The notes beneath the pieces are model-generated. The model was given only the letters and a program-made list of their open reading frames with translations, was not told the DNA's origin and did not search any database. Position numbers and translations under genes: made by a program. A DNA stretch of 64,000 bases from Legionella sp. PATHC035 (lineage in GTDB: Bacteria; Pseudomonadota; Gammaproteobacteria; Legionellales; Legionellaceae), in NCBI RefSeq assembly GCF_026191115.1, contig NZ_JAPHOT010000001.1, positions 1,452,501-1,516,500 of the forward strand. Direction: 5' to 3'. Shown here piece after piece: positions 1-15,883 of the stretch. Numbering within the stretch: position 1 is the first letter of the stretch; the number at the start of each line of letters is the position of its first letter.

Positions 1-3000
1 ATCAAGTTGATTCTGGCCATGACCCATGAAACCCTACCCGGTATTTTGCATTTAAATGAATTAAATCCTTACATCAATTTAGCCAATTCCCCCTTCTACA
101 TTGCCAAAGAGACACAAACCTGGCGTCGCATCAAATATAAAACAGGAGATGATATTCCATTGCGTGCAGGCGTTAGCTCTTTTGGATTTGGTGGCACCAA
201 TGCACATATTATTCTTGAGGAAGGTCGCCCCCACCAGACCATCGTTGAGCGCCATCCAACAAAACCCTATTATTTAATTGCACTTTCAGCCAAACACCAG
301 GAGAGTTTGCAACAAAAAATAGAGGATCTCTACCAATGGCTCAAGCAAAATAAAGAAACGGTTTTCTTACCATCCCTCAGTTATACACTCAATGCTGGTC
401 GTGCGCATTTTGTGTACCGTTGTGCTCTGGTAGTAGACTCCTTGGATGCATTACTCCAGGCGTTGAACTTGTTAATCCAACATGAAACCCCAGAATATTG
501 CCTATTAAATGAAGGTCAAACCTTGACGATTCAGGGACCGGTATTCGATGAAGTATATCAAGCAGCAATCAAGGCATTGCACCAGCCAGACAATCCAGAG
601 CAGTATCGCCACAAATTATTTATCTTGGCTGATCTCTATACGAAACACTATGCCATTGACTGGCAACAAGTCTATGTTGGGGAAAAAATATCGCGATTAG
701 GTGCTTTACCTGCCTACCCATTCATCAAGCAACGCTATTGGTATGACCAGGAATTAAATGCCACACCAGCACCCACAGTCCTCGTACCGGTGGTCAAACA
801 AGCCATCCCAGTAGCAATGGATCTGTCCAGCCAGGTATTAAGCTATTTACAGCACATCTTTGCAGAAAAATTACGTACCGAACCTAAATGCATTCACGTG
901 GATGAAACCTATGAGGTTTATGGCGTTGACTCACTAATTGGCTTGGAAATAACCAATCGCTTGGAGAAAGATTTTGGCAGCTTACCCAAAACATTACTCT
1001 ATGAACGCAATCGATTAAATGATTTAGCCAAATTTTTCATCAAAAATCATAAAGAAAAATTGTCTGGTCTCGTGTCGACAGGCCATGCGTTACCCACACC
1101 AATCCCAGAGGAGATAGAAACGTCGCAACCCATCACAATGACTTGTGAATACCCAAGTCAATCATCCCAGGATATTGCAATTATTGGCTTAAACGGAACC
1201 TTTCCAATGGCCAACTCCATGGATGAGTTTTGGCATAACTTAAGCTCAGGACGTGATTGCGTGGGCGAAGTGCCGGCTGATCGCTGGAATTATAAAGAGT
1301 ACCCGGTAATGATCGGAGGTGAGGAGCATTATTTCCCGCATGGAGGCTTTATACCTGATGTCGATAAATTCGATCCCTTGTTTTTTAATATCTCCCCACG
1401 CGATGCTGGACTTATGGATCCGCAAGAGCGTTTATTCATGCAGTCTGTGTGGTCTACTTTAGAAGATGCAGGTTATACGCGCGACAAATTAAAGAGTAAA
1501 GCAAACAATTCGGTCGGTGTCTTTGCTGGCGTGACTTATAATTTTTACCCACTGTTTATTGCAGAGGAGTGGCAAAAAGGAAATCGTGTGCCACTGGATA
1601 TCCAATCATTCTCCGTAGCCAACCGGATTTCCTACTTTCTTGATGTAAACGGTCCAAGCTTTGTGGTCGATACAGCCTGCTCATCCTCCTTGGCAGCAAT
1701 CCATTTAGCGTGCGAGAGCCTGTTACGAGGTGATTGTAAAATGGCAATTGCCGGTGGCGTCAACTTGTCGTTACATCCCAGTAAATACCACTTCCTAGGC
1801 AGTTTTAATTTTATGTCGGAACAAGGTCGTTGTGCGAGCTTTGCTGAGGGAGGAACCGGATATGTACCCGCCGAAGGTGTTGGCTCTGTATTGCTGAAAC
1901 CTCTAGCTGACGCAATTGCCGATAAGGATATGATTTATGGGGTCATTAAAGGGAGCAGCATGAATCATGGGGGAAAAACCAGCGGCTATACTGTTCCTAA
2001 TCCCAATGCGCAAGCAGCGGTGATTCTCCAAGCCTTAAAAAAGGCACAAGTTGATGCTCGAACGATATCCTATATCGAAGCGCATGGTACAGGAACGGCC
2101 TTAGGAGACCCTATAGAAATTCGTGGTCTTCAAGATGCCTTTGAACATTTTACGGAAGACAAGCAATTTTGTGCGATAGGTTCAGTCAAATCCAATATTG
2201 GACATTTGGAGTCAGCCGCAGGTGTATCCCAATTGGCCAAGGTCCTTTTACAAATGCGTCACCAAAAATTAGTACCTACCTTGCATAGTGCTCAATTGAA
2301 CCCCTTTATTGATTTTCAAAACTCACCTTTTTACGTACAACAAGAGCTCAGCGATTGGCAGCCTGACCATGATCTACCCCGTCGTGCCGGAGTCAGTTCT
2401 TTTGGTGCGGGTGGCGCAAATATACATATGATAATTGAAGAATACCGACCACCAAGAAAACAGCAGAATATCGTAAATGGCCCGTATGTCTTCATACTAT
2501 CTGCATTAAATGAGGAGCGATTGGCAGCAAAAATACAGCAAATGCACCACTATTTGTTACAACACTGCCCTACAGAAAATAAAGAATGGCTTCGAGATGC
2601 ATGCTTTACGTTACAAACCGGACGAGAGCATATGACCGCACGATTCGCAGTGCTCATCACCAACAAAGACGAGTTGCTTACGGCCTTGGCGAATTATCCT
2701 CAGGGTAATGGTTCTAAGTTCTGGATAAATCCTAATGCACCAAGTAATCCCCAACCCGCAGTTCATTTAGCCGAGTTAATCAGGAGCGCCCACTATGAAG
2801 AATTAGCTCAACATTGGGTTAATGGAGCAAAAATAAATTGGGACCAATTATACACACAACAATCACCCAACATTATCTCCTTACCTACCTATCCCTTTAC
2901 GAAACGACGCTGCTGGATTCCCACTAAGGAAGTGGAAACACAACCCGTAGCATTAGCCAGTGTGCAACCAAACATCCCTCCTGTAGTCCGCATTAGCGCA

Positions 3001-4878
3001 GAGATTGACGCCCAAGATTGGCTTTATCGGACCCAATGGGAGAAAAATCCTCAAGTCACTCAGACCGGATTGTCAAAACATGAGGGAAAATGGTTGATTT
3101 TTTGTGATCAAGAATCAATTCCTGCATTGAGGCAGCAGTTTGCAAGCGGTATTTATTGTTTTGCAAGCACCTCGGGTGCAGCAACTGATCAGGATGAGTA
3201 CGCAATCAATGGATCGCAAAAAGCAGATTATGAGCAATTATTTGCGACAATCCATGCATTGCACCAAGAACATTTACACGGAGTTATCTATCTATGTTCT
3301 GCAGTGGCTCCTCCTGAAACCTATACTAGAGAGAATACTGCTCAAACATTGTTATACCTGCTCCAGGCCATGATTGAGCATTCTTGGCAACATCAACTGA
3401 CGTTTTGTCTTGCCTCACAATCCGCCCAACACGTAAATCCCCATGACTCGGTCAATATAGGGCAACATCATCTTTGGTCCATGACCCGCATTTTTGCTGC
3501 CGAACAGGCAAAATACCAAGCCTTGCTGCTTGATTTGGAGAGGGATGCAGGGATAGAACAAAATGCCAAGATCCTGGCTCAAGAATTGACTCATTACCAA
3601 GTGCAACAAAATCATGTTGCCTATCGTGCTGGCCAACGCTATACCCTTCGTTTCATGCCTTATCAGATGCCACAAAATCATGAGCTAGCTCCCTCTTACA
3701 CTACTCCTGTGGCTGCGTTAATTACCGGCGGTTTAGGTGCGTTAGGTTATGAAATAGCAGAATCTCTCGTGGCCGAAGGGACACGCTTTATCTTGCTTAC
3801 TGGAACAACCCAATTGTCTGCTCAAACCGCAGAAAAAAACACCTGGCTCAAACAATTAGAAGCTCGAGGAGCACAGGTTCGCTACGCGGCGGTCGATGTA
3901 GCTGACAAAGAACACATGCAAAAGGTGATTATGAATGCCGAAAAAGCATGGCAGCAGCCCATTGATGGCGTTTTTCATTTGGCTGGAATCACGACGGATA
4001 ATGTCACGATTGCCGATATGGACGAAGCATTATGGAACAAGGTATTACGCGTCAAAATACAGGGCTCATTGGTGTTGCATGAACTCTTTTTACAATCCCG
4101 ATTGTCGTGCTTCGTGTTGTTTTCTTCCATTGCTGCAGTGCCTCATTTTGGTATGGCTGGGCTTAGTGCCTATGCCGTAGCCAATGAATTCATGAGCGGC
4201 CTAGCTTTATATCGTCGCAGCATGCAATTACCTGCATCCAGCATTAACTGGGTCGCCTGGTCGGAAAAAGGAATGAGTCACCGGCATAATCATGATGCAT
4301 TTTTAGATGCGGTAGGCATGGCGTCGCTAAGTATTAAGGATGGAGTTGCCCTATTTCATACCCTTCTCAGACTTAATCTTGCTGAAATTACGGTGTGTCA
4401 CATTCAATGGAAGAAATTCTTACACGTTAATCCCACCGCCAAACAACTGGATTTCTTTAACTATTTTGTTGCTGAGTTTGCTGCAAGCCCATCCACAGTG
4501 GTCGTTTCTACATTAAACCCCGAAGAAATTCCGGCATTAGTTCTGAATCTCTTTGGGAGCGTCTTAGGCTTGGACGTGGCTGAAATTGATCGGGAAACCC
4601 CTTTCCAGCAATACGGGATGGACTCCATTACCGGCATCGATTACACCGAAGCACTCGGTCAACATTTTCCCGATGTGGTCGCACCGATGGACTTATACCG
4701 CTACCCCACCCTCAATCAATTGACGAATTACATCATGCAACGCGTGCAAATAAACTGCGAGCCCAGTCCTGCACCACTTTTTAGTGCGGAGGCTATTGAT
4801 TTGGAGCACTTAAACGCTGCACAACTCAATGAACTACTTGAACTGGAATTAAAAGAGCTAGAGCTGGCCTATGAATGA
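1..4878 (+). CDS. Trans-AT type I polyketide synthase, 5'-truncated by window edge (KS end-ACP-KS-KR-ACP)
   Basis: The frame is open to the first base, so the gene starts upstream of the window. Numbering here starts at a TTG at base 7, which is not a true start. The order is: the C-terminal end of a ketosynthase (to about residue 75, ending with the GTNAH motif), a post-KS linker, an ACP with phosphopantetheine Ser309 (GVDSL), a complete KS (about 387-830; Cys558, His693, His733 all present), a ketoreductase (TGGLGALG at 1240-1247, catalytic Tyr1389 in YAVAN) and a terminal ACP (Ser1540). No acyltransferase lies after either KS, and the linkers end in the short aromatic motif typical of trans-AT modules. 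Its stop overlaps the next PKS start by 8 bp, so the two are translationally coupled. The first visible module would leave a beta-ketone and the second a hydroxyl. The family call is secure; the product is inferred. Confidence 0.93.
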   Translation: MKLILAMTHETLPGILHLNELNPYINLANSPFYIAKETQTWRRIKYKTGDDIPLRAGVSSFGFGGTNAHIILEEGRPHQTIVERHPTKPYYLIALSAKHQESLQQKIEDLYQWLKQNKETVFLPSLSYTLNAGRAHFVYRCALVVDSLDALLQALNLLIQHETPEYCLLNEGQTLTIQGPVFDEVYQAAIKALHQPDNPEQYRHKLFILADLYTKHYAIDWQQVYVGEKISRLGALPAYPFIKQRYWYDQELNATPAPTVLVPVVKQAIPVAMDLSSQVLSYLQHIFAEKLRTEPKCIHVDETYEVYGVDSLIGLEITNRLEKDFGSLPKTLLYERNRLNDLAKFFIKNHKEKLSGLVSTGHALPTPIPEEIETSQPITMTCEYPSQSSQDIAIIGLNGTFPMANSMDEFWHNLSSGRDCVGEVPADRWNYKEYPVMIGGEEHYFPHGGFIPDVDKFDPLFFNISPRDAGLMDPQERLFMQSVWSTLEDAGYTRDKLKSKANNSVGVFAGVTYNFYPLFIAEEWQKGNRVPLDIQSFSVANRISYFLDVNGPSFVVDTACSSSLAAIHLACESLLRGDCKMAIAGGVNLSLHPSKYHFLGSFNFMSEQGRCASFAEGGTGYVPAEGVGSVLLKPLADAIADKDMIYGVIKGSSMNHGGKTSGYTVPNPNAQAAVILQALKKAQVDARTISYIEAHGTGTALGDPIEIRGLQDAFEHFTEDKQFCAIGSVKSNIGHLESAAGVSQLAKVLLQMRHQKLVPTLHSAQLNPFIDFQNSPFYVQQELSDWQPDHDLPRRAGVSSFGAGGANIHMIIEEYRPPRKQQNIVNGPYVFILSALNEERLAAKIQQMHHYLLQHCPTENKEWLRDACFTLQTGREHMTARFAVLITNKDELLTALANYPQGNGSKFWINPNAPSNPQPAVHLAELIRSAHYEELAQHWVNGAKINWDQLYTQQSPNIISLPTYPFTKRRCWIPTKEVETQPVALASVQPNIPPVVRISAEIDAQDWLYRTQWEKNPQVTQTGLSKHEGKWLIFCDQESIPALRQQFASGIYCFASTSGAATDQDEYAINGSQKADYEQLFATIHALHQEHLHGVIYLCSAVAPPETYTRENTAQTLLYLLQAMIEHSWQHQLTFCLASQSAQHVNPHDSVNIGQHHLWSMTRIFAAEQAKYQALLLDLERDAGIEQNAKILAQELTHYQVQQNHVAYRAGQRYTLRFMPYQMPQNHELAPSYTTPVAALITGGLGALGYEIAESLVAEGTRFILLTGTTQLSAQTAEKNTWLKQLEARGAQVRYAAVDVADKEHMQKVIMNAEKAWQQPIDGVFHLAGITTDNVTIADMDEALWNKVLRVKIQGSLVLHELFLQSRLSCFVLFSSIAAVPHFGMAGLSAYAVANEFMSGLALYRRSMQLPASSINWVAWSEKGMSHRHNHDAFLDAVGMASLSIKDGVALFHTLLRLNLAEITVCHIQWKKFLHVNPTAKQLDFFNYFVAEFAASPSTVVVSTLNPEEIPALVLNLFGSVLGLDVAEIDRETPFQQYGMDSITGIDYTEALGQHFPDVVAPMDLYRYPTLNQLTNYIMQRVQINCEPSPAPLFSAEAIDLEHLNAAQLNELLELELKELELAYE

Positions 4879-7800
4879 TACCACTACTTTAAAAAAATCA
4901 TTGTTGATGATTCAAAAGCTTAAAAAACTTTTGCAGGAACAAAATGAACAATCATTTGATCCCGTTGCGATTATTGGGATGAGCTGTCGTTTACCCACAG
5001 CAAATACCCCGCAAGAATTTTGGGAGTTATTATGCCAAGGTAAACAGGTCATTTCTTCAATCCCCGATGAACGTTGGGAGCTGCTAAAAGGAACTCGAGA
5101 ACCCGAACAACGTGATGTCAATTTACCTTATTGGGGTGGCTACTTGCAGCAGATTGAGGCGTTTGATGCCTATTTTTTTGGCATAAGCCCCCGCGAAGCC
5201 ATGCGCATGGATCCGCAACAACGTATTTTAATGGAGGTCGCTTATGAATCCCTTGAAGACGCTGGTTTAACTGTTGAAACCTTAGCCGGCTCCAATATGG
5301 GCGTTTTTTCGAGCTTATACGCAAGCCAGTTCAGTCATCTACAAAAGCTGGACTCAGATATGGATGCTTTGTTTATTCCTACAGGAAGTGCCATCAGTAT
5401 GGCAGCCAATCGCTTATCGTATTTATTCGATTTGCGGGGTCCTAGCCTGGTATTAGATACTGCATGCTCCTCTTCACTGATTGCCATACAATTAGCATGC
5501 CTCAACTTACAGGCAAAATTATGTGATACCGCCCTGGTCAGCGCAGTGAATATCAATTTATTACCCTCCATTCACGCGGTTTTAGCCAAAGCAACGATGC
5601 TCTCGCCAACTGGACAGTGCCACACTTTTGATGCCAAAGCGGATGGTTATGTGCAAGGCGAAGGAGCAGGCTCCATTGTGCTCAAACCACTTTCCAAAGC
5701 ATTAAAGGATCAAGACAAAATCTATGCCGTGATCACCGGAGGGGCGATAAATCAAGATGGCAAAACAAATGGTTTAACCGCCCCCAACGGTTTGCAACAA
5801 GAACAATTATTACGTTCCGCCTATCGAGCAGCCAAAACAGACCCTGCGCACATTGCCTATATCGAATGTCATGGAACAGGAACCTTTTTGGGGGATCCTA
5901 TTGAAGTGCAGGCTTTGGGAGAGGTGATTGGCAACAATCGTAATCCTGAAAAACCCTGCTGGATTAGCTCAGTCAAAACCAACGTAGGCCATCTGGAACC
6001 TGCAGCAGGTATTATCAGTGTGATTAAGGTGGCTTTAGCTTTAAAAAAAGGGTTGCTTCCCCCCCACCTTAATTTTACAGAGGCAAACCCGCATATCCCC
6101 TTTGATCGTTATTCTTTGCGTATCCCGCAGCAAACAGAACCATTACCTCGCTATGGTGATAAGTGCATTGCGGGCGTGAGTGGCTTTGGTTTTGGTGGTG
6201 CCAATGCCCATCTTGTACTCCAGGAACATTCTGTAAATGAGCAACCTGACTGCACACAGGCCCTCACTCGAGATAAAGAATTATTTACCATTTCGGCAAA
6301 AGAGCCTGCTGCATTATCTGCTTTGATTGGGCTTTGGTGTGATTTTTTAAAAAACAATCCAGAAACGAACCTGGCGCAACTCTGCTACAACCTCCATCTC
6401 AAACGTTCCCATTACGTACATCGTCTCGCCATAATCAGCACCTCAATTGCGGATCTTTACCAAAAGCTGGAGATTTTACGTGCCGATCCTCATACGAAAA
6501 ATAAACAGATATTTATCAATCAGGAACTGAAAAAATCCAACAGCCCGCTGAAAATATCGGAGTTTGCGACCATAGACTTACCGCTTTTAGCGAAAAACTA
6601 TATCAACCATGCACAGGTTGATTGGAAGAAATTTGAAGCACAACGAACTTACATGCCTCTGGATATGCCGTTTTATCCATGGCAGCGTAAAACTCATTGG
6701 CCAACTTTCGAGCAAATCGCGACAAGCAAACATGGCAATACCAACCATCCTATGCGAGGAAGAGTCCTTTCTTCGCCTTTATCCGCCCGACAATTTGAGT
6801 TTGTCTTTGATACCAAAACACTGCCGGAGGTTCAGGATACTTTTTATGTTTTGCATGCAGGCTATTATCTGGAAATGTTAGCTTATGCCTCCGAGAAACT
6901 ACAACCAATAGGCTCCTTTAGCATACATCATCTTAATTATTTATCCCCTATATTAGTTCTGGATGGAAAAACCGTCTTGGTCCACTTAATCATCGAACAG
7001 GATGAAAATAATGCATTATCTTTTCGTTTTTTCAGCAGTGATGGCACCGAACATTGGATAGAACATGCAACTGGATGCTTAGCTCTGCATGCTCCCACTC
7101 GCAACGAATTCGAACAAGCCAAGCTCAAGCTGATGCAAGGACTTCCTGCGTCAGGAACTATGGAACATTTTTACAACCGCATCACAGAAATGGGGATGCC
7201 CGCCGGTGGGACCATTCGTTGGGCACATCAATATTGGGTCAATAACAATGAATTGTTTTGTGAATTACGCGAACCTAAAGCTGCAGAGCGTGGAAAGCAA
7301 TTTGTAACGCAAATGCATCCAGGAATCATCGATGCTTGCATTCAAACTCTCTTTTTATTATTGCCAGAACAATTGTCTAAACCCTATATTGCATCACATA
7401 TGGGCACTGTAGAATTTTATGGTTCTGCAGAAGACCAACGATACATTCACACCGTATTAAAAGAACTCCATCCGGAAGGGAAGCATATCATTGCGGACTG
7501 GTACTTGTTGGATAAACACTATAGGGTGATTGCTCAATGCCATGATCTACGCATGACCGTACTCAACGATACCCTACAAATTAATCAAATTATGGAGATC
7601 CAGTCTCAATTCCAACTCGATTTATCTTTACCTTATGAGGCATGTAAACATCAATTGATTCATTATTTGACTGAACAATTCGCGATGATTTTTTCGATGC
7701 CACAACATGACATTAGCCCCTTCCAATCCTTGCATGAATTAGGGATGGATTCGCTGATGGCCTTAGCGGTAATCCGAATCATAGAAACCAATTTGAACGT

Positions 7801-8755
7801 TACTTATTCTTTACCGCTCATGATGCAAGGGCCATCCATTAATGAGATTGCTGAGTATGTGTTATCAAGCCAATGGCTAGGCACGAAAATAGAGCCTAAG
7901 CCACAAAAACGTTTAGATAATCTGTGGATTGCCAATCGAAAAATTCAAGAAAATGCTCAAGTTCGCTTGTTTTGTTTTCCCTATGGCGGTGGTGGCGCCT
8001 CCATTTATCGTGAGTGGCAGCAGGAGTTCCCCGATTATATTGAAGTATGCCCGGTACAGTTGCCAGGTAGAGAAAATCGGATGGAAGAGCAACCCCTAGA
8101 TAATCTTGATAATCTGATTTCTTTGTTGGCCCATCAGCTGCATCCCCAATTTGATTTACCATTTGCCTTTTTCGGCCATAGTTTTGGTTCACTGATTGGA
8201 TTTGAGCTCACTCGGTATTTGCGTCGCCATCACTTTGCCACCCCGGTCCATCTTTTTGCATCAGCTTATCCTGATCCCCGGGTCCCCTCCAAAAGTTTGA
8301 CGAATCTGCTGGCAAAACTACAACACTTCAATATCAATTTATTTGATTTAAATTCAGAACGACTCGGTGAATTAGACGACCAACAATTAACGACTTTATC
8401 CAGCGTATTTCAAGAAAATGGTATTGTTGATTACAGCGATGAGCGAATGAACAAAAGCATTATTAAGGTATTATTACCCATTTTTATCGGTGATATGAAC
8501 ATTGTAAAAAGTTATGCTTATCGTGATGAATTACCGTTAAAACTGGATTCCACTGTATTTTTAGGGACACACGATGCCTGGGTCGCTCCCGAAGATCATT
8601 TTGGATGGAGCAATCACTTCTTGAAACCCTGTGAATTTCAACAATTTGACAGCGGACATCTGTTTATAAGAGAAAAAGAAATAAGATCGAAAATCATTCA
8701 AAAAATTACCGATAAGCTCTCGTGTTTTAATACGGCAGAATGTGAGATCCAATAG
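4871..8755 (+). CDS. Trans-AT type I polyketide synthase, terminal module KS-DH-like-ACP-TE
   Basis: The protein has 1294 residues. A complete KS occupies about 30-450 (Cys199, His334, His374). A PKS dehydratase-like double hotdog follows (about 627-900), then an ACP (Ser961 in LGMDSL) and a C-terminal alpha/beta hydrolase resembling type II (GrsT-like) thioesterases, with nucleophile Ser1104 in GHSFG, likely acid Asp1235 and His1263. The dehydratase-like half is odd. The usual HxxxGxxxxP motif cannot be aligned: the region before YYLEM is shorter than normal and has only His662, although the partner Asp821 (HPGIIDAC) is kept. It may act as a cyclase or hydrolase, or be inactive. The thioesterase makes this the chain-terminating protein. 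There is no acyltransferase. It is read directly from the upstream PKS gene and is convergent with the acyl-AMP ligase gene. Confidence 0.93.
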   Translation: MNDTTTLKKSLLMIQKLKKLLQEQNEQSFDPVAIIGMSCRLPTANTPQEFWELLCQGKQVISSIPDERWELLKGTREPEQRDVNLPYWGGYLQQIEAFDAYFFGISPREAMRMDPQQRILMEVAYESLEDAGLTVETLAGSNMGVFSSLYASQFSHLQKLDSDMDALFIPTGSAISMAANRLSYLFDLRGPSLVLDTACSSSLIAIQLACLNLQAKLCDTALVSAVNINLLPSIHAVLAKATMLSPTGQCHTFDAKADGYVQGEGAGSIVLKPLSKALKDQDKIYAVITGGAINQDGKTNGLTAPNGLQQEQLLRSAYRAAKTDPAHIAYIECHGTGTFLGDPIEVQALGEVIGNNRNPEKPCWISSVKTNVGHLEPAAGIISVIKVALALKKGLLPPHLNFTEANPHIPFDRYSLRIPQQTEPLPRYGDKCIAGVSGFGFGGANAHLVLQEHSVNEQPDCTQALTRDKELFTISAKEPAALSALIGLWCDFLKNNPETNLAQLCYNLHLKRSHYVHRLAIISTSIADLYQKLEILRADPHTKNKQIFINQELKKSNSPLKISEFATIDLPLLAKNYINHAQVDWKKFEAQRTYMPLDMPFYPWQRKTHWPTFEQIATSKHGNTNHPMRGRVLSSPLSARQFEFVFDTKTLPEVQDTFYVLHAGYYLEMLAYASEKLQPIGSFSIHHLNYLSPILVLDGKTVLVHLIIEQDENNALSFRFFSSDGTEHWIEHATGCLALHAPTRNEFEQAKLKLMQGLPASGTMEHFYNRITEMGMPAGGTIRWAHQYWVNNNELFCELREPKAAERGKQFVTQMHPGIIDACIQTLFLLLPEQLSKPYIASHMGTVEFYGSAEDQRYIHTVLKELHPEGKHIIADWYLLDKHYRVIAQCHDLRMTVLNDTLQINQIMEIQSQFQLDLSLPYEACKHQLIHYLTEQFAMIFSMPQHDISPFQSLHELGMDSLMALAVIRIIETNLNVTYSLPLMMQGPSINEIAEYVLSSQWLGTKIEPKPQKRLDNLWIANRKIQENAQVRLFCFPYGGGGASIYREWQQEFPDYIEVCPVQLPGRENRMEEQPLDNLDNLISLLAHQLHPQFDLPFAFFGHSFGSLIGFELTRYLRRHHFATPVHLFASAYPDPRVPSKSLTNLLAKLQHFNINLFDLNSERLGELDDQQLTTLSSVFQENGIVDYSDERMNKSIIKVLLPIFIGDMNIVKSYAYRDELPLKLDSTVFLGTHDAWVAPEDHFGWSNHFLKPCEFQQFDSGHLFIREKEIRSKIIQKITDKLSCFNTAECEIQ

Positions 8756-8772
8756 TCTGAGTTGCTTTATAA

Positions 8773-8798
8773 CCCGGATTAGCGCAGCGTAATCTGGG
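8773..8798. repeat. REP-like palindrome between convergent PKS and ligase genes, possible bidirectional terminator
   Basis: Arms CCCGGATTA (8773-8781) and TAATCTGGG (8790-8798) form an imperfect hairpin in the 47-bp gap between two converging genes. The minus-strand core GATTACGCTGCGCTAATC differs by one base from a second copy near 16,030-16,047. The repeat identity is seen directly; a terminator role is inferred from position, since no strong U-tract follows. Confidence 0.7.
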
Positions 8799-8802
8799 TA
8801 AA

Positions 8803-11800
8803 TTACGTCAACCAATAATGGTTCTTCTCAAAACAATAAGTCGGTAAGATGACTTTTGATAATCCATGAGTATAGGGGGCATAATTCGCGGCCCAATCGA
8901 CGTGTTTGCCATTTAAATAAGCACTTTTTAGATCGCCACCAATAACGATTTCTTCAGTCAACGTAGTTTCTACGGCTACGGTTTGACCTAATTGCTCAAT
9001 CAACTCCTGCTTACTCTGAGCATAAATGGCTATCCGCCATTCGAAATGACTACGGCCTGTAGCTGCCGTGTAGCATATATCGGCTAATGAGTCCTTAGTG
9101 GTTTTCAAATAATCTTTATAGGCACCTATCAAAGACTGCAACGAGTTCTCCGTTTTTGCAGATAAAACAAAAAGTGGTGTTGCAGGTAACTCAATCGGTT
9201 CTTTTTTGTTGTCTTGAGCTGACTCCTCAATGATCACATGAGCATTAGTCCCATTAAAGCCAAAAGAGCTGATAGCAGCCCGACGAGGATTTTGGCCTCG
9301 TTCCCAAGGCTTGTTCACGGCCATCACTTCTGCAGGAAAGTTTAACCGAATATGCGGGTTGAGCAGCTTAAAATGAAGATTCGCTGGAATTTGCTCATGC
9401 TGTAAGGCCAAAATAGTTTTGATAAGGCCGGCGATACCCGCCGCAGCTTCCAAGTGACCAATGTTGGTTTTTACCGCCCCCAAATACAGCGGATGATTCA
9501 ATTCCCTATGCTCACCATAGACCTGGCCTATTGCACCGATCTCGATAGGATCCCCTAAAGAAGTCCCTGTTCCATGGCACTCAATATAATCAATGTCATT
9601 CGATTTTAATCCCGATTTAATCAAAACAGACTGCAATAGTGATTTTTGCGCAGCACCATTAGGTACCGTTAGACCACTACTCGCACCATCCTGATTAATC
9701 CCGGATGCTTTGATAACCGCTAAAACTCGATCATTATCCCTTTGCGCTGCAGATAAAGGTTTTAAAATAACCACGCCACATCCTTCACCGCGAACATAAC
9801 CATTTGCACTTGCATCAAACGTCTTACATGCCCCATCGGGCGATAGCATCCCCGCTTTTCTTAAATTGAGGGTGAGATCGAGAGACAAGAGCGCATTCAC
9901 TCCGCCAACGATGGCGAGCCCGCATTCTTCGTTACGTATGGACAAACACGCCTGATGAAGAGCAACCAATGACGAGGAGCACGCTGTATCAATGGCCATA
10001 CTTGGGCCTTGAAGCCCTAAAGCATAAGACAGTCGTCCAGAAGCGGAGCTTGCCGCATTACCCGTTGCGACGTGAGGGTGAATAATTAATTCTTTATGGC
10101 TAAAAATAATATGTTCATAATCATGACTCGAAATTCCAATAAACACCCCGGTGCTACTCCCACGTAATTGACGCGGATCGCACGCGGCATTTTCCAAGGC
10201 TCGCCATGCGTTGGTTAATAATAGGCGTTGTTGCGGATCCAAGAGCAAGGCCTCACGAGGTGAAATGGAGAAAAAACCCGCATCAAACTCGGTAATGCCA
10301 TCAATGCAGCCTCCTTTTAGTGGCGGTAAGGAATTCAACGCCTCAGGGGATCGATTGCTGTAATATTCAGAGAACCAACGCTCTTTGGGAATCTCTCGCA
10401 CCCCATCTTTTCCCTCCGCCAAAAGTTGCCAAAATTCATCGATGTCCTTAGCACCTGGAAATTGGCAGCTCATACCAATAACAGCTATCTCTTCATGCCA
10501 TGGCGATCGAAGATTTTTTGAATGCTCTGGCGTCGATCGCTGAGGCTCTTCTTTTTTAGAGCTCAACTCCTCATACATATAATCAATTACTGCCTGGATA
10601 TTGGGAAAATTAAATAATAACGAACTCTCCAAGATTAAAGCATTGCCTAATTTTGTCTGTAACAAATTAATTAATTCTACGGCATTAATTGAATCAAGGC
10701 CTAGGTCAAAAAATCCTTTACTCAAGTCGATGGGCGTGTCTTCCATAGGGATGTAGTGAGCAACTGATGTTAACACCAGATCTTTTATTGCCAATCGCTG
10801 CTCTTCCTTCGTCAACTGCTTAAATCCTTCGAACCATTGACTTGGATTTTTAACTGCATTCACCTCATGCTCATCAACTTGCAGCCTATCTTGCGCTTCA
10901 GAGGCAATAAAACGATAAAGGGGCAACAAATGATGTTCCTGAATAAATTGTTTACAACGTCTACGTTGTAACTTACCACTGCTTGTTTTAGGAATCGATT
11001 TAGCCGGTACTAAATGGATGGCCTTAGCCGTAATATGACTGTCTTGGCTTAGTCTTTGATTGATACGTTCAACGATCTCAGGATACGTTTGTGGCGCGGT
11101 TTTAGGCTTTAACTCGGCAACCACTACTAAAATTTCTTCATCTTCGACTTGATCAGCATAGGCAATCACACATCCTTTTCGTATCGTAGGATCTGCATGA
11201 AAAACGGATAACTCGATGTCTTGAGGGTAATAATTTTGGCCACGAATAATGATCATATCTTTTATTCGCCCACAAACGAAAAGCTCATTTTGGTATAAAA
11301 ATCCAAGATCACCACTTCGCAAGTAGTTTTCATTCGAGGGATCATGAGCTAAATGTGCATGAAAGGTTTTCGCGGTTTCTTCTGGATTATTATAATAACC
11401 TTTCGCTACCGATTTACCTTGAATCCAAATCTCGCCAATCTCTAATTCACCACATTCGGTCAATAAGTCTGGATTCACGATTTTTAATGGCATCAGCGGG
11501 GTTCCACTACTTTCCAGGCAAGTAGAAGCACCATCACCTGGGTTAATGTCGACCTTATTCAGTTTTAATTGCTCCGAGTTGACAGAAAGTCTAATTTCCT
11601 CTGAAAGCGCGAATTTACTTGAGGTCATTACCGTGGATTCGGCCAAGCCATAACAAGGTAATAAAGCGTTCTTTTTCAGACCAGCAGAAGCAAACGTGGT
11701 ATAGAAAAAATCCATCGTTTTAGGATTAATGGGCTCTGCTCCATTCGCAGCTACTTGCAGGCAACTTAGGTCCAATGTTGCAATATGTTCCTTAGTTTCT

Positions 11801-12699
11801 TTTGAGGCGCATAATTCATAAGCAAAGTTAGGGCCACCAGTTAGTGTGCACCGATATTTTGAGATCCCTTCCATCCATCGGGATGGTTTTGCTATGAAAT
11901 CCAGAGTGGGTAACAGCACAGAAGTCCCGCCCACGTAGATTGGCTGAATCACGCCCGCAATTAAACCCATATCATGATAAGGAGGTAACCAGGAGTAGCA
12001 AATAGTATTGTCGCTGGTCTGGCAGGCATACTTAATAATTTCTGAGTTATCGACTAGGTTACCATGACTGACTAAAACACCTTTTGGTTCAGCAGTAGAG
12101 CCCGAAGTATATTGGATAAAGGCGATATCATCACAAAGAACTGGATAAGGTGTGATCTGGGTTATGTCAATTTTTATATCATGAGTAATAATCAACATAT
12201 TAATTTCAATGGATTTCAATGTCTTAAACAACTGCTCATGCTTATCTGATAGGCCAACAAAAGATTTTAATCTGTTGGGAATAAAACGATTTATTTTTTG
12301 CGCGATATTGAGACCTCTTGAGGTCATTACGTCAAAAAGAATTAATTGTGGCTGAACATTCTCGATAATATGTAAAAATCGATTGGCCATCATTTTATTA
12401 AACGGTGGGACCAAAGGCACCGCAATTGTCCCAGTAGCCAAACAAGCAAAAAATCCTACGATAAAATCTATTCCGGGCTGAGCACATAAAATGATTCGAT
12501 CTTTGGGATTTGCGTTTTGTTGAATTTGGTAAGCTAAATGAAAGACTCTAGCGATCAGTTCTTCATAGGTTATGACGTTGAGCTCTTTATCCTTACTTAA
12601 CAACCGATAGGCCGGTTTTTGCGGAGAGTTTTGATAATTGAGCAACAGTTTGGAAATAATTGTATCGGTTGGGCTATTACCAGCAGAATCTTGCGACAT
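8803..12699 (-). CDS. Fatty-acyl-AMP ligase-like / ACP / ketosynthase loading protein of the PKS
   Basis: The protein has 1298 residues. An adenylate-forming domain fills about 1-590: the ATP-binding motif YTSGSTAEPKG, YGLAES, the signature GRIKDMIIIRGQNYYPQDIE and the C-terminal catalytic lysine region KTSSGKLQRR. The KDMIIIRG-YPQDIE wording is typical of fatty-acyl-AMP ligases (FadD32/FAAL clan), which hand acyl-adenylates to an ACP rather than to CoA. An ACP follows with Ser670 (LGLDSI), then a complete KS (about 735-1160; Cys907, ECHGTGT, NIGHLE). The protein stops just after the post-KS linker (NHYWL), so the rest of this module must be on another polypeptide. There is no acyltransferase. 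The inferred role is to activate and load the starter acid, probably the lyase product, and to start elongation. The substrate cannot be read from sequence. The start is an ATG preceded by GTGGTGG. Confidence 0.9.
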   Translation of the reverse strand: MSQDSAGNSPTDTIISKLLLNYQNSPQKPAYRLLSKDKELNVITYEELIARVFHLAYQIQQNANPKDRIILCAQPGIDFIVGFFACLATGTIAVPLVPPFNKMMANRFLHIIENVQPQLILFDVMTSRGLNIAQKINRFIPNRLKSFVGLSDKHEQLFKTLKSIEINMLIITHDIKIDITQITPYPVLCDDIAFIQYTSGSTAEPKGVLVSHGNLVDNSEIIKYACQTSDNTICYSWLPPYHDMGLIAGVIQPIYVGGTSVLLPTLDFIAKPSRWMEGISKYRCTLTGGPNFAYELCASKETKEHIATLDLSCLQVAANGAEPINPKTMDFFYTTFASAGLKKNALLPCYGLAESTVMTSSKFALSEEIRLSVNSEQLKLNKVDINPGDGASTCLESSGTPLMPLKIVNPDLLTECGELEIGEIWIQGKSVAKGYYNNPEETAKTFHAHLAHDPSNENYLRSGDLGFLYQNELFVCGRIKDMIIIRGQNYYPQDIELSVFHADPTIRKGCVIAYADQVEDEEILVVVAELKPKTAPQTYPEIVERINQRLSQDSHITAKAIHLVPAKSIPKTSSGKLQRRRCKQFIQEHHLLPLYRFIASEAQDRLQVDEHEVNAVKNPSQWFEGFKQLTKEEQRLAIKDLVLTSVAHYIPMEDTPIDLSKGFFDLGLDSINAVELINLLQTKLGNALILESSLLFNFPNIQAVIDYMYEELSSKKEEPQRSTPEHSKNLRSPWHEEIAVIGMSCQFPGAKDIDEFWQLLAEGKDGVREIPKERWFSEYYSNRSPEALNSLPPLKGGCIDGITEFDAGFFSISPREALLLDPQQRLLLTNAWRALENAACDPRQLRGSSTGVFIGISSHDYEHIIFSHKELIIHPHVATGNAASSASGRLSYALGLQGPSMAIDTACSSSLVALHQACLSIRNEECGLAIVGGVNALLSLDLTLNLRKAGMLSPDGACKTFDASANGYVRGEGCGVVILKPLSAAQRDNDRVLAVIKASGINQDGASSGLTVPNGAAQKSLLQSVLIKSGLKSNDIDYIECHGTGTSLGDPIEIGAIGQVYGEHRELNHPLYLGAVKTNIGHLEAAAGIAGLIKTILALQHEQIPANLHFKLLNPHIRLNFPAEVMAVNKPWERGQNPRRAAISSFGFNGTNAHVIIEESAQDNKKEPIELPATPLFVLSAKTENSLQSLIGAYKDYLKTTKDSLADICYTAATGRSHFEWRIAIYAQSKQELIEQLGQTVAVETTLTEEIVIGGDLKSAYLNGKHVDWAANYAPYTHGLSKVILPTYCFEKNHYWLT

Positions 12700-12749
12700 A
12701 TACCACCACTCTCAATCATTGAATTTTGGATAATTATTAATTCCCTATA

Positions 12750-12755
12750 ATTATA
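12750..12755 (-). promoter_or_regulatory. Possible -10 element for the acyl-AMP ligase gene
   Basis: A perfect TATAAT is read on the minus strand about 50 bp upstream of the start codon. No convincing -35 hexamer lies at the right spacing, so this is a weak call. The 164-bp gap to the upstream channel gene suggests the ligase gene may have its own promoter. Confidence 0.3.
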
Positions 12756-12863
12756 GATGGCTTTTTTTGAACTTGTGGAAAAAAAAAGAACTTTGCTAAG
12801 CCCGCCATTTTTGACTGCAAACGGCAGGGGGTTTGCTTAAACAAGCAATGATCGACAGAAAAG

Positions 12864-14147
12864 TTATGCAAAACTCCAGGTAATTTGTCCACCAATTACA
12901 GTTGTTTGCGTGTTGTTATGCCCTTTAAGAGAGGTCACTGGAGTAATGAGATTCACCGGCATTTGGTTAAAAAATGAATGACCGACACCCACATCATAGC
13001 CTAAATTCTCAGTAGGTTGAAAATGGGCTCCCACAGCCAGGATAGTTGCAGTTCCTACCGGATCTGCAATGCCTCGATCGCGATCATTAGAAGGAGTACT
13101 CATAAATTGGATCCCACCTCGTAACAACAATTTTTCGGTTGTTTTAAACGTGGCTCCGACTGCATAATCAACAGAATTGTGGTAATTGAAGGGAATGGTT
13201 ACTGGAATTGTTACTCCAAAAGGAGTTTCCGTATGCTCCATTGTTATTTGATTAAATGTTCTCCAATTGGTGTAAAATACCGTGGCCATACCCGTCCATC
13301 GTCGGGTAAAATCATGTTGCACACTCAATTGAGCTCGAGCAGGCAAAGCAGCTTTGGTTTCTTGTTGATTTGTTCTGAAGACACCTCCGAAAGGGACATG
13401 AACAGTGCTGTGCCCTTTAGTCGTAATTGAGATTTTAGAGTAGTAACTTAATCCAATCCGAGTTGCCGATGACAAATCAAATAACAAACCACCATGCCCA
13501 CCGTATCCCCAGCCACTTAAATGATTCTCAAGTCGTGAATCGTAAGGAAAAGAAATAGGTGGACCATACATATTATTGAGTGTAAATGCCAAATGAAGTG
13601 CATCAAATCCCGCGCCTAGAGAAAAACGATCCGTTAGCTTCACACCCACACTTGGACCTACATCAATCCCCACCACTTGGGAACGCGTGGATGCATAACG
13701 CGCAATGGAGGAGCGTGAGGAGCCATAATTCGTACCTAAAGCGAATGGGGTCGTAAAGTTTAAACCCAATGTAATGCGCTGATTAACAGGAGCAGCATAA
13801 TAAAATGAAGGCATGAACGCTTTAATTTGACTGCGCGCTACCCCAGATTGAACAATGGGGAAAGGAAATGGGGATGGAGATGGAGGTGTAACTGAAGTCC
13901 CTGTAAAACGTGCTGTCCCTGTGACACCTAATAAATTAGCCACTATTTGTTGATGACGCAGCTTCACCAGTCCTGCCGGATTTGTGTAAGCCGTACTTGC
14001 ATCACTATCAGCAGTTGCCCAATCTGCATAAGCCACCCCTAAGCCCGCGGTATTAACAAAAGGCAAACTAAAATCGGAATGTGCCGAAACAGGTGAAGAA
14101 AGACAGAAAACAGAGATCGCTAGGGAAAACTGGGACAATTGGCGCAC
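12864..14147 (-). CDS. FadL/TodX-family outer-membrane hydrophobic-compound channel
   Basis: The protein has 427 residues, with an N-terminal signal peptide ending near PVSAHS. Mature FadL-family features follow: an early hatch segment (NTAGLGVAYADWAT, with AYTNPAGL as the family hallmark), then alternating beta-strand sequence up to the C-terminal aromatic residue expected of a beta-barrel (ending TWSFA). FadL proteins move long-chain fatty acids or aromatic hydrocarbons across the outer membrane. The gene lies between the ammonia-lyase and the acyl-AMP ligase genes in the same direction, which suggests it takes up an acid substrate or passes the hydrophobic polyketide. That link is inference from position. 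A generic fatty acid transporter is the alternative. Confidence 0.88.
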   Translation of the reverse strand: MRQLSQFSLAISVFCLSSPVSAHSDFSLPFVNTAGLGVAYADWATADSDASTAYTNPAGLVKLRHQQIVANLLGVTGTARFTGTSVTPPSPSPFPFPIVQSGVARSQIKAFMPSFYYAAPVNQRITLGLNFTTPFALGTNYGSSRSSIARYASTRSQVVGIDVGPSVGVKLTDRFSLGAGFDALHLAFTLNNMYGPPISFPYDSRLENHLSGWGYGGHGGLLFDLSSATRIGLSYYSKISITTKGHSTVHVPFGGVFRTNQQETKAALPARAQLSVQHDFTRRWTGMATVFYTNWRTFNQITMEHTETPFGVTIPVTIPFNYHNSVDYAVGATFKTTEKLLLRGGIQFMSTPSNDRDRGIADPVGTATILAVGAHFQPTENLGYDVGVGHSFFNQMPVNLITPVTSLKGHNNTQTTVIGGQITWSFA

Positions 14148-14263
14148 GTTTTACTCCTTTATATGTACGTGCTCAGCGCCTATCAAAGAACGGCTCAAAT
14201 ACCCATATTGAGAGAATCCAACCGTCCGAGTAACCATCAATAAGGGGCTCTGAGCGATTACCT

Positions 14264-15883
14264 TTAGATTTTGCCATCCTTTAATAAATTAATCATGAGC
14301 TCAATCTCTTCCGACATCGGTCTGCAATGCTCTATTTTTGGTGAATAATGACGAACATTGTGGTAAATGGATTGAGCTTTTTTACTTGCCTTTTCGATAC
14401 CCCGCAATTCAAGTGCCTGAGTTGCCGCAAGCAGCAAAATAGCGGTTAGACGCTCCAAATTGGCTACTGACTCTTGCAAATCAAAAGCAGCATGTGTTCC
14501 CAAGCTGTTCACATCTTGATTATCACCCTCTGTCGGTAAAGTATATGCCTGATGTGACTGGGCCAATTTGCGATTTTGTACTGCAAGCGCCGCAGACAGC
14601 AGCTGCATGGAACGGAACCCGTTATGTTTTTCTGGATTAGGCACTAAATTCACTGGTAAATCATGATTCTTACGCGGATGGACTAAATTGGCGAGCAATG
14701 CATGCATCCACGTCGAGGCTTGAGCGATATTCATTTTCAAAATATCACACGCATCAGTAACATAATAACCCATAAAATTAGCACTATGATGAATATTATT
14801 CGCAGCAACATCAATAACAGGATTATCATTAACGGAATTCATTTCACTTTCTACCCACTCAATGGCACGTTCCAAATTCTCTTGAAAAGGACCAAATCCT
14901 TGAGGAACTGAGCGAATAGAATAATAATCTTGTACGGGTTTATAGGTGTAATCAGTGGTCCGTAACTCATCTAAATCCGTCAATAATTGACTGCCTTCCC
15001 AGAAATCAATGAAAAATTGATTGATTTCAATTTCTCCCTTCTGCTTTTTCAGTTGGTGTACCATTGGGTGATACGCGCTACTAATTACGAGTAAAGACTC
15101 TAAGGTCATCGCAACGGCTGCTAACATGTATTTGAATAAATGATGCAAATCATAAACTGCCAAACTGGCAATTGCCGTCATAAATGACGTGCCATTAATC
15201 AAAGCAAGCCCATCACGCATCACCGGTTTATACGCTTTGAGACCAGCTAATTGAATGGCCTCAGGGGCTAACATCACTTTATCCTGATAAGTGACTGCGA
15301 CAGGCTCTCCAATCAACGCTGCGGCAATCATGGAAAGAGGAATGAGATCGCCACTAGCACCAATCGATCCATAACAACGGACAACGGGGGTAATACCCGC
15401 ATTGAGAAAATCTAACAGTGAATTGATCAATTCTGGATGAACACCTGAATACCCTTGCGCCAGGCAATGAGCCCGCAACATCATCGTGACACGCACGAGG
15501 TGAGGTGAAACTACCGTACCTAAACCGCAAGAAAGTGAGCGAATAATGTTTTCTTGTCGTTCATTAATGGATTCATAATAATCTAATGTGTCCGTATCTT
15601 TGAGTGCAGCATCGATATAACGAACCTGATCACCAAAGTTGGTATTCACACCGTAAATCGGAACTCGCGAATCAACATGTACTTTCAAATATTGATACGA
15701 AGCCTCTATTGCTTCCATCGCCTGTGGTGGTAAAGCCACCGCTGATGAATAATGCGCTAGTGTTTGAGAGGAGGCAATGGTCAATTGACAACCATGTCCG
15801 ATGGTTACAACGGACCTACCTGTTCGATTCACATCGACACCATGAGACGTTTGGGGAGTATTGAAAGACTTTAGATGTTCCAA
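14264..15883 (-). CDS. Aromatic amino acid ammonia-lyase (PAL/HAL/TAL superfamily, MIO enzyme), probable cinnamate-forming
   Basis: The protein has 539 residues and spans the whole fold. The Ala-Ser-Gly triad that cyclises to the MIO electrophile is at 176-178 (GSIGASGDLIPLS). The Tyr loop reads YGVNTNFG, and LINGTSFM, YSIRSVPQ and NDNPVID are conserved. At the pair that helps set substrate choice (Phe-Leu in PALs, His-Leu in TALs, Ser-His in histidases) it reads Ser-Leu (IIRSLSCG), so a histidase label is unlikely, but Phe versus Tyr is not settled. The start is a TTG with GGAG seven bases upstream; the next in-frame Met is residue 56 and would remove conserved sequence. No hut genes are nearby. 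The neighbourhood (FadL channel, acyl-AMP ligase, PKS) argues that it supplies an arylacrylate starter. Confidence 0.9.
   Translation of the reverse strand: MEHLKSFNTPQTSHGVDVNRTGRSVVTIGHGCQLTIASSQTLAHYSSAVALPPQAMEAIEASYQYLKVHVDSRVPIYGVNTNFGDQVRYIDAALKDTDTLDYYESINERQENIIRSLSCGLGTVVSPHLVRVTMMLRAHCLAQGYSGVHPELINSLLDFLNAGITPVVRCYGSIGASGDLIPLSMIAAALIGEPVAVTYQDKVMLAPEAIQLAGLKAYKPVMRDGLALINGTSFMTAIASLAVYDLHHLFKYMLAAVAMTLESLLVISSAYHPMVHQLKKQKGEIEINQFFIDFWEGSQLLTDLDELRTTDYTYKPVQDYYSIRSVPQGFGPFQENLERAIEWVESEMNSVNDNPVIDVAANNIHHSANFMGYYVTDACDILKMNIAQASTWMHALLANLVHPRKNHDLPVNLVPNPEKHNGFRSMQLLSAALAVQNRKLAQSHQAYTLPTEGDNQDVNSLGTHAAFDLQESVANLERLTAILLLAATQALELRGIEKASKKAQSIYHNVRHYSPKIEHCRPMSEEIELMINLLKDGKI

What the first reader, a model, noticed from the sequence alone, without database searches (positions are those of the whole stretch)
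1..15883. Candidate arylacrylate-primed trans-AT polyketide locus in Legionella, possibly the legioliulin fluorophore cluster
An MIO ammonia-lyase, a FadL channel and a FAAL-like/ACP/KS loading protein point at two PKS genes that end in a thioesterase. The sequence shows all domains with intact KS and ACP residues. Known families: PAL makes cinnamate from phenylalanine, and FAAL enzymes load acids on ACPs. From memory, legioliulin is a phenyl-bearing isocoumarin traced to cinnamate in autofluorescent Legionella. Linking this locus to it is inference.
Basis: partly seen in the sequence, partly recalled or inferred. Interest (0 to 1): 0.85.

Follow-up and report, generated by a model that had tools for sequence, protein, structure and literature searches.

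The report
Legionella legioliulin fluorophore gene cluster
This stretch of a Legionella chromosome carries most of the gene set that very probably makes legioliulin, the already described compound behind the blue-white glow of some Legionella species, plus one extra loading gene that was found beside the cluster only in its closest relatives.

Summary
Window 1-15883 encodes the end of a 4830-residue AT-less polyketide synthase (PKSA, starting 9.6 kb upstream), a second synthase (PKSB: KS-DH*-ACP-TE), a divergent FAAL-ACP-KS protein, a FadL-type channel and an MIO ammonia-lyase. The lyase falls below the curated HutH and PAL cut-offs; the genome's hutH lies beside hutU elsewhere. Lyase orthologs (73-100%) occur in 18 of 45 same-genus genomes, and all 18 hold PKSB. 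Named hits include 7 of 10 species that one paper lists as blue-white fluorescent, among them L. parisiensis, a legioliulin producer. The guess, legioliulin, is very probably right, and the cluster is already known.

One correction: the divergent FAAL-ACP-KS gene is probably not the starter loader. It lies beside the cluster in 3 of those 18 genomes, and each of the four complete PKSAs examined has its own N-terminal FAAL-ACP. The module order fits cinnamate plus five C2 units closing to a C19 8-hydroxyisocoumarin (inferred; the original papers were not held).

New details: the trans-AT gene lies inside the cluster in some lineages but not here; a non-Legionella MAG has a shorter assembly line; PKSB's dehydratase-like domain lacks its catalytic histidine.

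The parts
1..4878 (+). 3' third of PKSA (whole gene C1:1442886-1457378, 4830 aa: FAAL-ACP-KS1-DH-KR-ACP-KS2-ACP-KS3-ACP-KS4-KR-ACP); in the window: end of KS3, ACP (about 841-1065), KS4 (about 1171-2442), KR (about 3706-4275), ACP (about 4516-4740), C-terminal docking-like tail
4871..8755 (+). PKSB, 1294 aa: N-terminal docking-like helix, KS5 (about 4964-6226), DH-fold domain without the usual catalytic His (about 6791-7600), ACP (about 7664-7861), thioesterase (about 7961-8725); overlaps the PKSA stop by 8 nt
8803..12699 (-). accessory FAAL-ACP-KS protein, 1298 aa; beside the cluster in the window genome and two near relatives only; under purifying selection (dN/dS 0.10-0.13); no docking tail seen by eye
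12864..14147 (-). FadL/TodX-family outer-membrane channel, 427 aa; within 1.5 kb of the lyase in all 13 Legionella loci; no match in the two MAG loci L057 and L058
14264..15883 (-). MIO aromatic amino acid ammonia-lyase, 539 aa (probable phenylalanine ammonia-lyase activity); Leu117 and Gln456 at the positions where HutH proteins have His and Glu

Best explanation
This is the legioliulin (lgl) biosynthesis cluster of a Legionella whose own fluorescence is not known to me. Proposed steps: (1) the MIO lyase deaminates L-phenylalanine to trans-cinnamate (substrate inferred). (2) The N-terminal FAAL of PKSA adenylates cinnamate and loads it on the first ACP (inferred from domain order and conservation). 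(3) A discrete malonyltransferase serves the AT-less modules; in this genome the best candidate is the unlinked AT at C1:467287-468114 (inferred). (4) Five condensations follow: KS1 with DH and KR gives the phenyl-diene; KS2 and KS3 leave ketones; KS4 with KR gives an alcohol later lost as water; KS5 leaves the ketone that becomes the 8-hydroxyl (inferred). (5) Aldol closure and dehydration, perhaps on the modified DH-fold domain of PKSB, make the benzene ring; the enol at C3 attacks the thioester at the TE and releases the isocoumarin (inferred). Predicted product: 8-hydroxy-3-(4-phenylbuta-1,3-dienyl)isocoumarin, C19H14O3. The FadL protein may move the hydrophobic product or precursor (inferred). 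The FAAL-ACP-KS gene is a later addition of unproven link to this pathway.
For: Domains and order. Lyase below the HutH cut-off (353 of 539 bits), while the genome's other lyase scores 682 and sits next to hutU; the HutH-type His and Glu are Leu117 and Gln456 here, invariant in 18 orthologs (numbered 116 and 455 there). Co-occurrence: lyase in 18 of 45 same-genus genomes, PKSB in 19 of 45, namely the same 18 plus G029, which has a 79% lyase fragment. Phenotype match: named hits include anisa, bozemanae, gormanii, parisiensis, rowbothamii, steigerwaltii and tucsonensis, 7 of the 10 blue-white species listed in PMC10975825. PMC5126622 states that legioliulin is a trans-AT PKS product, shows it in L. 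parisiensis and mentions cinnamic acid as its starting unit. Same PKS architecture in L. parisiensis and L. rowbothamii, with orthologous KS positions in the tree.
Against: The published lgl sequences and structure could not be read, so identity and carbon number are unchecked. Substrates of lyase and FAAL are not shown; the lyase also falls below the curated PAL cut-off (279 of 519 bits). Of the species that PMC10975825 calls blue-white, cherrii, dumoffii and lytica (list) and wadsworthii (another passage) are not among the named hits; the tool may leave out the window's own or near records. L. steelei and L. saoudiensis are hits whose fluorescence I did not find stated. PMC11828895 reports only 50% similarity of an L. 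lytica cluster to legioliulin, and counts its legioliulin-type PKS among the most commonly found clusters across Legionella at a 40% identity limit, which would be wider than fluorescence. The 33% lyase of L. parisiensis was not scored as HutH.
Confidence: 0.9

Rival explanations
1. The lyase is a histidine ammonia-lyase and the locus is an unrelated PKS next to a hut gene.
For: Best curated model by score is histidine ammonia-lyase (PRK09367, 361 bits; hutH 353 bits); the best PDB match is also named probable histidine ammonia-lyase (7tqr).
Against: Both scores are below the cut-offs (524, 539). A second lyase in the same genome passes them (736, 682) and lies next to urocanase. His and Glu of the HutH group are replaced. 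The neighbours seen are PKS, FadL and housekeeping genes, not hut genes.
Confidence: 0.02
2. The cluster makes a related but different arylpolyene isocoumarin, for example from a p-coumarate or alkyl starter, with the extra FAAL-ACP-KS gene changing the starter in this clade.
For: FAAL-ACP-KS sits beside the cluster on the lyase/fadL strand in all three genomes that have it and is under purifying selection. PMC5126622 itself speculates about another starting unit in L. cherrii.
Against: The lyase is 91% and 95% identical to those of L. steelei and L. steigerwaltii, whose loci lack the extra gene. The extra protein shows no docking tails of the kind at the PKSA/PKSB junction and its KS groups with stand-alone FAAL-ACP-KS proteins of two other genomes.
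Confidence: 0.1
3. The FAAL-ACP-KS gene is the cinnamate loader.
For: AMP-ligase, ACP and KS all match their families and keep the KS Cys and ACP Ser motifs; same strand as lyase and fadL.
Against: Not found in 15 of the 18 genomes with the lyase, apart from a 49% relative on another contig of G026 (only 14 candidate places per genome were scored). The fadL-PKSB gap of 11 named Legionella loci holds none; only L046 has it. In L. parisiensis, a producer, the best match by E-value is 38% identical and is PKSA's own N-terminus. PKSA's FAAL-ACP is present in the four complete PKSAs examined.
Confidence: 0.04

Closest known systems
Legioliulin (lgl) trans-AT PKS cluster of L. dumoffii / L. parisiensis (Ahrendt 2013, cited in PMC5126622; the 2013 paper itself not seen)
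   Same: AT-less modular PKS, cinnamate starter, isocoumarin-type logic; orthologous genes with the same PKS architecture in L. parisiensis
   Different: This clade has an added FAAL-ACP-KS gene between fadL and PKSB; L. parisiensis has other genes there
Histidine ammonia-lyase HutH (TIGR01225)
   Same: MIO lyase family, ASGDL motif, 30-31% identity to three HutH-group proteins
   Different: Below cut-off, different residues at two positions, no hut neighbours
Phenylalanine ammonia-lyase (TIGR01226; solved relatives 2nyn, 2nyf)
   Same: Leu at the position where HutH has His, as in the printed alignment to 2nyn
   Different: 279 bits against a cut-off of 519
CurJ-type PKS dehydratase fold (5tz6, 3kg8)
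   Different: Catalytic His missing; LHAG kept in 15 of 16 and Asp of DxxxQ in 16 of 16 sequences
Stand-alone FAAL-ACP-KS proteins of Legionella genomes G026 and G034
   Same: Same domain order, 47-49% identity over nearly the whole length
   Different: No PKS gene seen beside them; G026's copy lies beside a desaturase-like gene (named by eye), on another contig than its lgl genes

Membership tests
legioliulin (lgl) cluster | Modular PKS without AT domains (trans-AT) | tested here: met
legioliulin (lgl) cluster | Non-HutH aromatic ammonia-lyase to supply cinnamate | tested here: met
   (sequence only; substrate not shown)
legioliulin (lgl) cluster | Ortholog in a species shown to make legioliulin | tested here: met
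   L. parisiensis; producer per PMC5126622
legioliulin (lgl) cluster | Occurrence follows blue-white fluorescence | tested here: inconclusive
   7 of 10 listed species found by name; three listed species and wadsworthii not seen; steelei and saoudiensis have no phenotype statement that I read
legioliulin (lgl) cluster | Direct identity with the published lgl gene sequences | not testable with these tools
   papers not held
legioliulin (lgl) cluster | Product is legioliulin | not testable with these tools
   needs metabolite data
HutH | Score above TIGR01225 cut-off | tested here: not met
   353 against 539 bits
HutH | Beside hutU | tested here: not met
   hutU is next to the other lyase; neighbours of this lyase
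Phenylalanine ammonia-lyase TIGR01226 | Score above cut-off | tested here: not met
   279 against 519 bits; so it is not filed as a member, though it probably works like one
FAAL (fatty acyl-AMP ligase) for PKSA N-terminus | Closest solved relatives are FAALs | tested here: met
   best rows 7r7f/7r7e/7r7g (572 aa, named only 'Polyketide synthase') and 3kxw (named 'Saframycin Mx1 synthetase B'), then FadD23 and FadD32; substrate not tested
Active PKS dehydratase (PKSB domain) | Catalytic His of HxxxGxxxxP | tested here: not met
Active PKS dehydratase (PKSB domain) | PKS dehydratase fold | tested here: met
   predicted model

The most novel reading that the evidence does not exclude
In this small clade the added FAAL-ACP-KS protein feeds a second, alternative starter (for example a fatty or other aryl acid) into the legioliulin line or extends the starter before PKSA, so that these species make a second, differently coloured fluorophore besides legioliulin.
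Probability: 0.1. Interest if true: 0.55.

Novelty: new member of a known kind. Interest (0 to 1): 0.3.

Why it matters
The cluster ties a diagnostic trait of environmental Legionella (blue-white glow) to genes, and the compound's role for the bacterium was still unassigned in PMC5126622. The comparison adds testable points: the loader is probably PKSA's own FAAL; the trans-AT is inside the cluster in some branches and outside in others; and a non-Legionella bacterium carries the line with the DH-KR-ACP-KS2 block missing, which predicts a product exactly one C2 unit shorter and so tests the module-by-module reading.

Full report
What is there. The window is C1:1452501-1516500 of a 3.9-Mb, two-contig genome. 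Five frames lie at the stated place. PKSA enters from the left; its full gene is 4830 aa and starts 9.6 kb outside the window. Pfam slices give FAAL-ACP-KS1-DH-KR-ACP-KS2-ACP-KS3-ACP-KS4-KR-ACP (the ACP after KS2 was cut by my slicing and shows as a partial match). PKSB (1294 aa) is KS5-DH*-ACP-TE and overlaps PKSA's stop by 8 nt. PKSA ends in an LNELLELEL-type tail and PKSB begins with a helix of the SLLMIQKLKKLL type; both are alike in L. parisiensis and L. rowbothamii. That these are docking parts is recalled knowledge, not tested. On the other strand lie the lyase, FadL and a 1298-aa FAAL-ACP-KS protein.

No AT domain was found in PKSA or PKSB. The genome has three Acyl_transf_1 matches, none in the cluster: one beside a FabH-like and a FabG-like gene (names by eye), so probably FabD itself; one in another probable PKS region; and one alone at C1:467 kb. 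All three pass the curated fabD cut-off, so that model does not tell them apart. Against the AT inside the cluster of L. saoudiensis the lone one is 55% identical, the one near 3.29 Mb 41% and the FabD-like one 33%.

The lyase. It matches Lyase_aromatic (447 bits) but falls short of the curated HutH (353 of 539 bits) and PAL (279 of 519 bits) cut-offs. The other lyase of the genome scores 682 as HutH and its neighbour scores 947 as hutU. Aligned with three HutH-group proteins, the cluster lyase has Leu117 where they have His (SL against SH) and Gln456 where they have Glu; both are invariant in 18 orthologs (where the numbering is one lower). That these positions help decide between histidine and phenylalanine is recalled; the alignment printed shows Leu there in 2nyn, a phenylalanine/histidine ammonia-lyase entry, and His in 7tqr.

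Distribution. Of 45 same-genus genomes (own included), 18 have a near full-length lyase ortholog at 73-100% identity and G029 has a 79% fragment; all other matches are at 34% or less, and one genome has none. PKSB at E <= 1e-200 occurs in 19 of 45, exactly that set (at most 14 candidate places per genome were scored). A named scan gave 15 loci: steelei, parisiensis, gormanii, anisa, tucsonensis, bozemanae, steigerwaltii, saoudiensis, rowbothamii, three unnamed Legionella species, one Legionella MAG and two records titled Gammaproteobacteria MAG. PMC10975825 (passages seen) lists ten blue-white species; seven are among these hits. Cherrii, dumoffii and lytica are not, nor is wadsworthii, which another passage calls blue-white; I cannot tell whether they are missing from the collection, left out or without the genes. 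The fluorescence of steelei and saoudiensis was not found in the papers seen. No red species from that list and no L. pneumophila appears among the 15, but their presence in the collection was not checked. PMC11828895 (passages) finds legioliulin-type PKS genes widely across Legionella at a 40% identity limit; that limit would also catch paralogs, but the statement stands against a strict tie to fluorescence.

Link to legioliulin. PMC5126622 (passages and sections 16 and 20) calls legioliulin a trans-AT PKS product, follows its production in L. parisiensis by fluorescence, and mentions cinnamic acid as starting unit. PMC13229132 (passages) reports legioliulin genes in two further blue-fluorescent species. 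The 2013 and 2004 original papers are not held, so the gene-by-gene comparison and the structure check remain open.

The extra FAAL-ACP-KS gene. At E <= 1e-245 five of 45 genomes match (14 candidate places scored in nearly every genome). The window, G005 (96%) and G025 (92%) have the gene beside the cluster (L089 and L090); G026 (49%) and G034 (47%) have full-length relatives elsewhere, G034 without an lgl lyase. In L. steigerwaltii, L. steelei, L. bozemanae and sp. 515359 fadL lies within about 300 nt of PKSB; in L. parisiensis, anisa, tucsonensis, gormanii, sp. PC1000, saoudiensis and rowbothamii other genes fill the gap. So this gap holds different cargo in different species. The gene is under purifying selection (dN/dS 0.10-0.13; lyase 0.04-0.05), so it does something, but its KS groups with the two stand-alone proteins (100/98 support), nearest to the KS5 group under midpoint rooting and outside KS1-KS4, and no docking tail was seen. 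A link to legioliulin is unproven.

The trans-AT. In 5 of the 19 genomes (G013, G020, G023, G026, G029) an AT gene follows the lyase directly (coordinates); the same order is seen in L. rowbothamii, L. saoudiensis, the Legionella MAG and the non-Legionella MAG (some of these may be the same genomes under another handle). The other 14 have, on another contig or far away, an AT 86-100% identical to the window's; orthologs at 82-84% also occur in seven genomes without the lyase, one of them a partial match. G026 has both kinds (53% beside the lyase, 67% elsewhere). So the in-cluster AT was probably lost or replaced in the window's branch, and a more widely held AT is the likely supplier.

A shorter line. 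The MAG of L057 (RpoB 72% identical to three Legionella genomes, which are 95-98% among themselves) has PKSB, a 3514-aa PKSA, lyase and AT side by side. Its KS domains group with KS1, KS3, KS4 and KS5, with the KS5 Cys present; no DH, KR or KS2 counterpart was found between the first two KS. The Ser of its first ACP was not matched by my pattern. The module reading then predicts cinnamate plus four C2 units: 8-hydroxy-3-styrylisocoumarin, C17H12O3. Whether this is a loss there or a gain in Legionella is not settled.

Verdict. Interest is modest.

Noticed in passing
L054:11599-12447, L055:11617-12465, L057:11606-12454: A discrete acyltransferase gene directly follows the lyase in L. saoudiensis, L. 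rowbothamii and a non-Legionella MAG; the window's genome lacks it there and has an unlinked one at C1:467287-468114.
   Followed up: yes
L091:1545-18684: A non-Legionella MAG (RpoB 72%) has the cluster with PKSA lacking the DH-KR-ACP-KS2 block, predicting a product one C2 unit shorter.
   Followed up: partly
L090:4777-5826: In Legionella sp. PATHC038 a transposase-like frame (by eye) lies between lyase and fadL, and the fadL match begins only at residue 47.
   Followed up: no
C1:2255838-2257991 (L087:7049-10051): A 1000-aa FAAL-ACP protein with a further C-terminal part, 56% identical to the window's FAAL-ACP-KS over FAAL and ACP; similar proteins in G005 and G025.
   Followed up: partly
L050:13093-17796, L060:6246-10718: The fadL-PKSB gap holds different genes in tucsonensis and parisiensis than in the window (transporter-like frames among them, by eye), so the spot may be a recurrent insertion site.
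   Followed up: partly
L009:885-2083: A RES-domain gene beside a gene with a weak Xre/MbcA/ParS match, a possible toxin-antitoxin pair, about 18 kb upstream of the window.
   Followed up: no
L009:7637-9718: A GGDEF-EAL gene lies immediately upstream of PKSA, and its ortholog (85%) lies there in L. parisiensis too.
   Followed up: partly
C1:3260000-3299999 (L013, L014): Another probable PKS region (DNA matches to PKSA, a 3231-aa open frame, not domain-scanned) with its own discrete AT, 42% identical to the one at 467 kb.
   Followed up: no
G046 (genome of L058): This Gammaproteobacteria MAG gave 28 matches to the FAAL-ACP-KS query, so it looks rich in PKS genes; its lgl-like cluster is cut by a contig end.
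   Followed up: no
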